DNA of 64,000 nucleotides, from the NCBI RefSeq assembly GCF_041583195.1, contig NZ_JBFHGL010000002.1:248001-312000 (forward strand), in the 5' to 3' direction. This DNA comes from Sulfurimonas sp. (lineage in GTDB: Bacteria > Campylobacterota > Campylobacteria > Campylobacterales > Sulfurimonadaceae). The translations under genes were made by a program, and so were the position numbers. Under the pieces are notes generated by a model, which worked only from the letters and a program-made list of their open reading frames with translations, was not told where the DNA came from and ran no database searches. This document shows positions 17,486-19,153 of this stretch, piece after piece; position 1 is the first letter of the stretch; every line of letters begins with the position of its first letter.

Positions 17486-17833
17486 CTAACTAACTTGTAT
17501 AATGCTTATTGCATCATCTTCACTATAATCTACTTTTATTTCACTTACATTATCATCTTTGATCAATTTTAAATTTAATTCTCTCTCATTAATTGATATC
17601 ATACTTTTTAATTCAACACTATAACCATCTAGTACTCCATCAAGTGCATCTACTATTTTTACACTTAACTTTAACCAATGACGCTTTAGTGTATCTTCTT
17701 CTTCAGCATACATACCACTTTCATCATATTCTAACTCATCAGCTTGATTAGCCACATTATTTAACTTGTTAAATAATCTTTGAGAATCAATAAAACTCAT
17801 CTTTAACTTTTCGTAATCTTCTTCAATTAACAT
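17486..17833 (-). CDS. Conserved-looking hypothetical protein, 115 residues
   Basis: I do not recognise this small acidic protein. It has no signal peptide or membrane segment. The first 70 residues are predicted helical, with an acidic linker (DELEYDESGMYAEEED), and the C-terminal 35 residues look like beta strands rich in Asp and Glu. It is the first gene of a minus-strand unit with yebC and yigZ and is driven by one half of the divergent dyad promoter upstream. Coding is supported by good codon use, tight spacing to yebC and the lack of a competing frame. Confidence 0.65.
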   Translation of the reverse strand: MLIEEDYEKLKMSFIDSQRLFNKLNNVANQADELEYDESGMYAEEEDTLKRHWLKLSVKIVDALDGVLDGYSVELKSMISINERELNLKLIKDDNVSEIKVDYSEDDAISIIQVS

Positions 17834-17873
17834 ATGATCTCTTAAGTAAAAATTTAATCGTATAATACCATAA

Positions 17874-17910
17874 GAATATTATAGCTAGCATTTTTTCTGC
17901 TATAATATTC
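17874..17910. promoter_or_regulatory. Divergent promoter with perfect 12-bp dyad symmetry
   Basis: The arms gaatattatagc (17874-17885) and gctataatattc (17899-17910) are exact inverted copies separated by 13 bases. Each arm holds a TATAAT -10 box facing outward: 17901-17906 on the + strand, preceded by TG plus one base as in extended -10 promoters, and 17878-17883 on the minus strand. They would serve the kinase-like gene at 17933 and the unknown gene ending at 17833. The -35 zone of each promoter falls on the -10 box of the other, so the two directions may exclude each other. The sequence is seen directly; promoter activity is inferred. Confidence 0.5.
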
Positions 17911-17932: not shown

Positions 17933-18637
17933 ATGGATAACTACAAAGATCAATTTATCTCACATATGGTAGATGAGCTGCAAACTCCCCTAAAAGCTAT
18001 TTTAAAATTTTCAGATACATTGATTAAAAACAAAAGCGATATTGCCTCACAGGAAAAGTATTTAAAACTAATCCATCTTAGTGCTAAAAATTTAGAAAAT
18101 ATAATAAAAGATGTATCTGATATGTCAAACCTTCAAAACAATACAATTTCCATAGAATTAAATAAAGTCAATCTTAGAGATTTATTATCACAAAACTTTG
18201 AAATATTTCGCTCCAAAGCTAGAGAAAAAACAATCCGTTACTCTATTACATTTGGAAAAAATCTCCCAAAATTTATAGAAACAGATGGAAATAGACTATC
18301 TCAGGTTATATCAAACTTACTTAGCAATGCTATTAAGTTTACACCAAAAGACGGCGCTGTAAAACTAGAAGTCATATTTGATCAAGACAAATCTGTCTTA
18401 AAAGTTTTTGTAGATGACAATGGCCCTGGAATACCGGATTCAAAAAAAGCAGATATCTTTAAACCGTTTATTAAAGATAAAACAAACGTTACCTTTGAAG
18501 ATACTAGAACTGGTCTAGGACTATCAATATCATTATCTATTATAGAGTTATTAAATGGTAAAATAACGTTTGAGTCTTCAGAAGAAAAAGGAAGTACCTT
18601 TAATTTTGAAATACCTGTAAAAACATATGATGATTAG
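17933..18637 (+). CDS. Histidine-kinase-like protein lacking the phosphoacceptor histidine
   Basis: The 234 residues consist of a DHp-like helix hairpin (about 1-75) and a complete ATP-binding domain, with the N box around Asn128-Asn132 (SNLLSNAIKF), G1 DNGPG at 162-166 and G2 GLGLS at 194-198. There is no sensor, HAMP or transmembrane part. In the H box the usual SHELRTPL reads VDELQTPL: the phosphorylated His is Asp14. His11 lies three residues earlier, one turn out of register. It may therefore bind ATP without autophosphorylating, or act as a regulator of another kinase. No response regulator is adjacent. It is followed 9 bases later by an unknown gene on the same strand. Confidence 0.8.
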   Translation: MDNYKDQFISHMVDELQTPLKAILKFSDTLIKNKSDIASQEKYLKLIHLSAKNLENIIKDVSDMSNLQNNTISIELNKVNLRDLLSQNFEIFRSKAREKTIRYSITFGKNLPKFIETDGNRLSQVISNLLSNAIKFTPKDGAVKLEVIFDQDKSVLKVFVDDNGPGIPDSKKADIFKPFIKDKTNVTFEDTRTGLGLSISLSIIELLNGKITFESSEEKGSTFNFEIPVKTYDD

Positions 18638-18646
18638 GTTAAAATA

Positions 18647-19153
18647 ATGGCTATACTATCAAGTTTTAAACATAAGTTTTTTAGTGCTTTTCGTGAAATA
18701 TTTGTACATCACCATGGTTCTTTAGAATTCAGAGCTAAAATATTTGCTTTAGTTATCGCTTCTTTTGAGAATAAAATGGATGATAATAAAGAGTTCTTCA
18801 AAATAGTAAAAGAGTATGGATTAGAATTATATAAAGATGAACATAGAGCCCATCTGTTAACTATAACTACTCAGGAACTAGTAAAAAAAGTTTATGATAA
18901 TAACGGTTTGGATATTGATATATTAATAACGAATATCCAAAAAGAATTAAAAATAGTACCTAGATATGCAAAAAAAATAGATGTAGATGCTCTTAGACCA
19001 CTACTTTCATTTACACAAGACCCAGAACTGCTATCTTATCAAGAAAATATACTGGAATTTTTAGAAAACCTAAAGAATGAAACTATTAAAACTCAACAGA
19101 ATAAGATAGAAAAATCTGAAGAAAACATAGTCTCAAAATATACTTCTAGATAG
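18647..19153 (+). CDS. Hypothetical cytoplasmic protein, 168 residues
   Basis: I do not recognise this protein. It is predicted to be all helical and soluble, with no signal peptide. The N-terminal 20 residues are basic and aromatic (FKHKFFSAFREIFVHHHG) and contain a run of three His. The C-terminal 30 residues are a charged Lys/Glu tail. It starts 9 bases after the kinase-like gene, so the two are probably co-transcribed and may work together. Its last 8 bases overlap the convergent end of ttcA. Confidence 0.6.
   Translation: MAILSSFKHKFFSAFREIFVHHHGSLEFRAKIFALVIASFENKMDDNKEFFKIVKEYGLELYKDEHRAHLLTITTQELVKKVYDNNGLDIDILITNIQKELKIVPRYAKKIDVDALRPLLSFTQDPELLSYQENILEFLENLKNETIKTQQNKIEKSEENIVSKYTSR

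What the first reader, a model, noticed from the sequence alone, without database searches (positions are those of the whole stretch)
17933..18637. Histidine kinase without its phosphoacceptor histidine
The H box reads VDELQTPL, so Asp14 replaces the conserved His, while the ATP-binding N, G1 and G2 boxes are intact. No sensor domain or response regulator is linked. Loss of His with retention of the ATPase fold suggests a pseudokinase that regulates other kinases or binds nucleotide as a switch. The following unknown gene (18647-19153) may be its partner.
Basis: seen in the sequence. Interest (0 to 1): 0.6.

Follow-up and report, generated by a model that had tools for sequence, protein, structure and literature searches.

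The report
Histidine kinase lacking its phosphoacceptor histidine
A small bacterial signalling protein found in three closely related Sulfurimonas-type species looks like a histidine kinase but has lost the histidine that defines such kinases, while keeping its ATP pocket and staying under selection, so it most likely regulates other signalling proteins rather than passing on phosphate itself.

Summary
Window 17933-18637 encodes a 234-aa HisKA + HATPase_c protein whose H box reads FISHMVDELQTPL; gap-free alignment to HK853 puts Asp14 at the phospho-His position. Only two orthologues exist among 135 genomes of the genus (Sulfurimonas-like). Both lie at the same locus and both have Ser there. 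None of the three has His, so loss of His is conserved, but Asp is not. The gene is not decaying: three intact ORFs, dN/dS about 0.10-0.16. Of positions at least 90% conserved in related kinases, all three proteins changed 10 of 25 in the DHp helices but 0 of 25 in the ATP-binding core.

By phylogeny the protein descends from the H-NOX-associated kinases (HnoK) of the same genus. Its hosts have no H-NOX, and it lacks the HnoK coiled coil. It was inserted between an old conserved gene (18647-19153) and that gene's promoter, so the two now probably form an operon. That neighbour normally lives without any kinase, so "partner" is only weakly supported.

Best reading: a DivL/RetS-like pseudokinase, a nucleotide-binding regulator of another kinase or regulator. 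Target unknown; nothing biochemical was tested.

The parts
17933..18637 (+). Pseudo-histidine kinase, 234 aa, DHp (HisKA) + CA (HATPase_c) only
   Evidence: Pfam; H-box alignment; orthologues L050/L079 and L051; purifying selection; AF2 model with HK853/RetS/GacS/DivL as structural matches
17951..17995 (+). Degenerate H box, residues 7-21 (QFISHMVDELQTPLK); Asp14 codon GAT at 17972-17974; His11 at 17963-17965
   Evidence: Sequence; Asp/Ser/Ser in the three orthologues against His in all scored relatives
18284..18601 (+). Intact nucleotide-binding core, residues 118-223 (N, G1, G2, G3 boxes), including an altered ATP-lid segment (residues 177-192)
   Evidence: 0 of 25 conserved CA-core positions lost in all three; 3 of 5 lid positions changed
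17861..17866 (+). TATAAT within GTATAATACCATA: the promoter-like element that precedes 18647-19153 homologues in kinase-less genomes; here upstream of the kinase
   Evidence: Motif counts, intergenic sequences; direction ambiguous because the 17486-17833 gene is divergent
17901..17906 (+). Second TATAAT 26 nt before the kinase start, present in all three species
   Evidence: Intergenic sequences; consensus match only, not reported by the two-hexamer scan
18647..19153 (+). Downstream conserved protein of unknown function, 168 aa, all-helical; co-directional 9 nt after the kinase
   Evidence: 144 of 200 family genomes; no Pfam or PDB sequence match; AF2 pLDDT 88.9
17486..17833 (-). Divergent conserved 115-aa protein of unknown function, left edge of the insertion site
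   Evidence: Synteny

Best explanation
This is a true pseudo-histidine kinase: a free-standing, soluble DHp-CA module derived from an H-NOX-associated histidine kinase (HnoK type). It lost its H-NOX sensor, its N-terminal coiled coil (and, if its ancestor had one, a receiver) and its phosphoacceptor His, but kept an ATP-binding CA domain. Shown here: absence of His in all three orthologues, selective degeneration of the DHp, preservation of the nucleotide core, purifying selection, origin inside an HnoK clade, and insertion in front of an old conserved gene, probably forming a two-gene operon. Inferred: it cannot autophosphorylate at the canonical site, it still dimerises and binds ATP, and it works by protein contact. 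Most likely it forms heterodimers with, or docks onto, one of the cell's hybrid kinases and raises or lowers that protein's activity according to nucleotide state, in the way RetS acts on GacS and DivL on CckA.
For: D/S/S at the His column against His in all 32 scored relatives. 10 of 25 conserved DHp positions lost in all three against 0 of 25 in the CA core, Fisher p = 6e-4. Intact ORFs with dN/dS 0.10-0.16. Tree: the trio lies with HnoK kinases at 98/99 and 99/96 support. H-NOX absent from all three hosts but present in the sister genome G077. The model matches full DHp-CA folds, including pseudokinase DivL (4q20) and RetS (6dk7/6dk8, and 7n0e with GacS). Literature: DivL regulates without kinase activity (PMC4211667); the RetS kinase core inhibits GacS autophosphorylation (PMC5992135).
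Against: No target kinase or regulator is identified and nothing biochemical was tested. Retention of ATP-pocket residues may partly reflect fold constraints. The ATP lid changed at 3 of 5 conserved positions, so nucleotide binding may be altered. Only three orthologues exist, so conservation statistics rest on few, related sequences. The trio sits on a long branch (1.4-1.6 changes per column), so its exact sister is unsure.
Confidence: 0.52

Rival explanations
1. The kinase-like protein and the 18647-19153 protein form a dedicated two-protein system, the kinase-like protein acting as a nucleotide switch for the helical protein.
For: Adjacent and co-directional in all three species, 9-13 nt apart; the downstream gene has lost its own -10-like site there.
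Against: The downstream gene is ancestral and present without this kinase in 18 of 18 genera; co-expression may be a by-product of the insertion site.
Confidence: 0.15
2. Trans-acting kinase: the CA domain is still catalytic and phosphorylates a His on another kinase in a heterodimer, or a Ser or other residue on a partner, so it is a kinase without its own acceptor rather than a pseudokinase.
For: Complete N/G1/G2/G3 boxes; Glu15 of the H box kept; two orthologues have a hydroxyl residue (Ser) at the site.
Against: DHp H-box and ATP-lid positions conserved in active relatives are changed; the acceptor residue differs between orthologues (D/S/S); no partner known.
Confidence: 0.13
3. Response-regulator docking module: like DivL, the DHp binds a phosphorylated regulator and reports its state, or acts as a sink; ATP binding only supports the fold.
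For: DivL precedent (PMC4211667); DHp fold retained in the model.
Against: Conserved DHp positions around the H box are the ones lost (R17Q, N21K, G25K/R). No regulator lies nearby and there are no PAS domains.
Confidence: 0.12
4. Relic: a truncated HnoK copy drifting towards loss, kept only because it carries the promoter of the downstream gene.
For: Restricted to three species; long branch; lost His, coil and sensor; TATAAT elements lie upstream of the kinase.
Against: Three intact ORFs of 234-235 aa in separate assemblies, dN/dS 0.10-0.16, and a fully kept CA core.
Confidence: 0.08

Closest known systems
HnoK-type H-NOX-associated histidine kinases
   Same: Closest relatives by tree (98/99 and 99/96) and by identity (about 40% to L052, L061); same DHp-CA core; soluble
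   Different: No H-NOX in the genome, no N-terminal coiled coil, no His, no receiver (present in L060/L061); different locus
DivL (Caulobacter pseudo-histidine kinase)
   Same: Phospho-His replaced (Tyr in DivL) with H, N, G1, F and G2 boxes otherwise kept; regulatory function without kinase activity (PMC4211667); structural match 4q20
   Different: DivL has PAS domains and conserves one residue (Tyr, once Ala); here no sensor, and D/S/S
RetS (Pseudomonas)
   Same: Kinase-like core that cannot autophosphorylate and inhibits another kinase by core-core contact (PMC5992135); structural match 6dk7/6dk8/7n0e
   Different: RetS keeps its H box and lost the HATPase G boxes; here the reverse. RetS is also a larger hybrid kinase with receivers
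Che-linked His-less kinase family of the same bacterial family (own genome G000:C22:3510-4412)
   Same: HisKA-like + HATPase_c with N/S/Y instead of His
   Different: Not an orthologue (22% identity); in chemotaxis operons; far more widespread

Membership tests
Orthodox HisKA sensor histidine kinase | Phosphoacceptor His in the H box | tested here: not met
   Asp14 here, Ser in both orthologues; His in all 32 scored relatives and in HK853
Orthodox HisKA sensor histidine kinase | HisKA (DHp) fold | tested here: met
   Pfam HisKA 46 bits; helices 2-32 and 38-68 in the model
Orthodox HisKA sensor histidine kinase | HATPase_c with N, G1, G2 boxes | tested here: met
   89 bits; all CA-core conserved positions kept
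Orthodox HisKA sensor histidine kinase | Linked sensor input and cognate response regulator | tested here: not met
   234-aa ORF without extra domain; neighbours are YebC, a 115-aa unknown protein, the helical protein, TtcA-like, MTAN-like
HnoK (H-NOX-associated kinase) | Groups with H-NOX-linked kinases in a tree | tested here: met
   98/99 and 99/96 support
HnoK (H-NOX-associated kinase) | Gene for H-NOX (PF07700) alongside or in the genome | tested here: not met
   No PF07700 hit in G000, G163 or G174; 12 of 135 genus genomes have one
HnoK (H-NOX-associated kinase) | N-terminal coiled coil (RERxARKEAExLLExKSLEL) as in the genus's HnoKs | tested here: not met
   The ORF starts at the H box; HnoK relatives carry about 50-60 further residues
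DivL family | Tyr (or Ala) in place of His, with PAS domains N-terminal to the DHp | tested here: not met
   Asp/Ser and no PAS
RetS-type inhibitory kinase | H box kept, HATPase G boxes degenerate | tested here: not met
   The reverse: H box degenerate, G boxes intact
Pseudo-histidine kinase (functional class) | Lacks catalysis, acts by binding | not testable with these tools
   Needs ATP-binding, autophosphorylation and pull-down assays
Transmitter phosphatase (HExxT/N-type motif) | Conserved acidic residue and Thr/Asn four positions after the His column | tested here: not met
   ELQT in the window, EIQT in G174, but EMQI in G163

The most novel reading that the evidence does not exclude
An NO-sensing kinase lineage that, once its hosts lacked the H-NOX sensor, was stripped to a sensor-less, His-less, nucleotide-binding module and wired by promoter capture to an old helical protein of unknown function, giving a new two-protein regulatory switch that carries no phosphate.
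Probability: 0.12. Interest if true: 0.65.

Novelty: new variant of a known kind. Interest (0 to 1): 0.42.

Why it matters
Few bacterial pseudo-histidine kinases are understood (DivL is the main case). Here the likely ancestor, the missing sensor, the insertion site and the still His-bearing sister kinases are all visible within one genus, so the step from kinase to pseudokinase can be studied by comparison and by swapping domains. The asymmetry (phosphotransfer half lost, ATP half kept) makes a clear, cheap prediction: it binds ATP but does not autophosphorylate.

Tried and rejected
His11 as a substitute acceptor: it lies three residues upstream in a gap-free alignment to HK853, and the next residue is Met rather than an acidic residue; considered unlikely, not disproved. 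Asp14 as a conserved phosphomimic: rejected, orthologues have Ser. Wider distribution: one genome-contig scan returned only the G174 record (L079, Sulfurimonadaceae MAG N3D-Bin_8) and one viral scan nothing. Fold of the 18647-19153 protein: Foldseek gave no match at E <= 0.001, and VIA-align gave best Z 6.1 with scattered helical proteins, including globins at Z 4-5; the tool's note says this level is uninformative for helical proteins, so no fold is assigned. Pfam over 21 homologues gave only one-off weak hits. Former HnoK position: in G077 H-NOX-HnoK sits next to prs; the prs loci of G000 and G163 show no trace of it. YN00 dN/dS failed for most pairs, so NG86 is quoted, with dS near or above 1. 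A first YebC tree used truncated rows and was replaced by a YebC + IMPACT + GspF tree. A first H-box table ignored locus strand and was redone. Literature searches for surveys of His-less kinases returned little.

Full report
What is there. ORF 17933-18637 (+) encodes 234 residues, HisKA followed directly by HATPase_c. The H box is FISHMVDELQTPLKAIL. Aligned without gaps to HK853 (FIANISHELRTPLTAI) and to kinases of the same genome and family, Asp14 stands where the phosphoacceptor His belongs. The AlphaFold model (mean pLDDT 80) is a two-helix DHp plus a CA domain, with the ATP lid at low confidence; its best structural matches are HK853, RetS, GacS and DivL. There is no room for a sensor, and no receiver or regulator gene lies next to it.

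Is the loss of His real and kept? A search of all 135 held genomes of the genus gives two orthologues at E <= 1e-50: G163 (72%) and G174 (76%); nothing else comes close. A genome-contig scan names the G174 record as a Sulfurimonadaceae MAG. Both read SHMVSE, i.e. Ser (AGT) at the site, against Asp (GAT) in the window. No orthologue has His; Asp itself is not conserved. The three genes are intact, and NG86 dN/dS is 0.10-0.16 between pairs, though dS is near or above 1. The gene is therefore under purifying selection without its phosphoacceptor.

Which parts are kept? Across 32 related kinases I listed positions at least 90% conserved and asked which are changed in all three proteins. DHp: 10 of 25 lost (N11H, S13V, H14D/S, R17Q, N21K, G25K/R, L55E/D, I61V, L62S, K66N/H/S). 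CA core: 0 of 25. ATP lid: 3 of 5 (Q181, G191, G192). The DHp versus CA-core difference has Fisher p = 6e-4; because the three share ancestry, the p-value is only a guide. Some of these positions vary in other kinase families (HK853 has Thr at 21 and Arg at 181), so the list is relative to the kinases of this bacterial family. The phosphatase motif is not conserved either (ELQT, EIQT, EMQI). The pattern is of a module that no longer does phosphotransfer but still needs its nucleotide-binding fold.

Where does it come from? In trees of HisKA-HATPase cores the trio is nested with L052, L060 and L061 (98/99). Each of these sits directly behind an H-NOX gene (PF07700, 123-124 bits for L052 and L061). 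Adding all recoverable H-NOX-linked kinases of the genus keeps the trio with four of them (99/96). These relatives have a normal His, an N-terminal RERxARKEAE coiled coil and, in L060 and L061, a receiver. The trio has none of these, and no H-NOX is found in the three host genomes (12 of 135 in the genus have one). The hosts are monophyletic (bootstrap 100), with sister G077, which still has H-NOX-HnoK next to prs. H-NOX proteins of other bacteria work by inhibiting HnoK autophosphorylation (PMC12329717). The simplest history is that an HnoK copy lost its sensor and its catalysis and moved. The trio's branch is long, so its exact sister is unsure.

How did it get here? The block YebC, 115-aa protein, [kinase], 168-aa protein, TtcA-like, MTAN-like is conserved in whole or part through much of the genus without the kinase (about 70 loci read). 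The 168-aa gene is in 144 of 200 family genomes and all 18 genera. In 64 of 67 kinase-less loci with enough upstream sequence a TATAAT lies within 130 nt of its start, in the genus mostly 24-36 nt away; in the three kinase-bearing species none does, and two TATAATs lie before the kinase instead (for sequences). The first of these is inside GTATAATACCATA, the same string seen upstream of the 168-aa gene in kinase-less relatives. The kinase was therefore probably inserted between this gene and its promoter. Kinase and downstream gene are 9-13 nt apart with no predicted terminator between. These are consensus matches; transcription was not measured, and the first element could also serve the divergent gene.

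What does it do? Not shown. Without His, canonical autophosphorylation and relay should be impossible. With a preserved ATP pocket and a dimerisation fold, the best-supported mode is regulation by contact: heterodimerising with or docking on one of the cell's hybrid kinases. Precedents are DivL (Tyr for His, regulates CckA without kinase activity; PMC4211667) and RetS (its core inhibits GacS autophosphorylation; PMC5992135). It is not a DivL (no PAS, different residue) and not a RetS (opposite half degenerate). A dedicated pair with the downstream protein, a trans-kinase role, a regulator-docking role and slow decay remain possible, in that rough order of weight.

The downstream protein. Its 21-sequence model is all-helical with good confidence (pLDDT 88.9), but no Pfam family, PDB sequence or convincing fold match was found. 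Its wide presence without the kinase argues against an obligate partnership.

Verdict. Observation confirmed; pseudokinase reading supported; Asp-specific reading not supported; partner reading weak. A new variant of a known kind, of moderate interest, chiefly because ancestor, sister kinases and insertion event are all visible.

Noticed in passing
Own genome G000:C22:3510-4412 (-), outside the window, locus L132; relatives L133-L146, L152-L180: A second, widespread His-less HisKA/HATPase family sits in chemotaxis operons (cheA-cheR-[this]-cheD-cheB). In 44 loci (a few fetched twice) the His position is Asn 35, Ser 8, Tyr 1, His 0; CheD is adjacent in 44 of 44, CheB found in 40. Present in 42 of 121 sampled family genomes, 4 of 18 genera. 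Possibly more interesting than the window's case.
   Followed up: partly
window 18647-19153: Family-wide conserved all-helical protein with invariant motif AFRExxxxxH..SLxFRAK, no Pfam family, no PDB match.
   Followed up: partly
window 17486-17833 (-): Conserved 115-aa protein of unknown function next to yebC, present in only part of the genus.
   Followed up: no
L027 (genome G131), upstream of the 168-aa gene: In another genome the same gap holds a tyrosine-recombinase-like gene and a small excisionase-like gene, so this spot may be prone to insertions (read from sequence only).
   Followed up: no
L120-L131: H-NOX genes are scattered in the genus (12 of 135 genomes); at least two separate kinase clades follow them, some with a receiver, and two are followed by other PAS-type signalling proteins.
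   Followed up: partly
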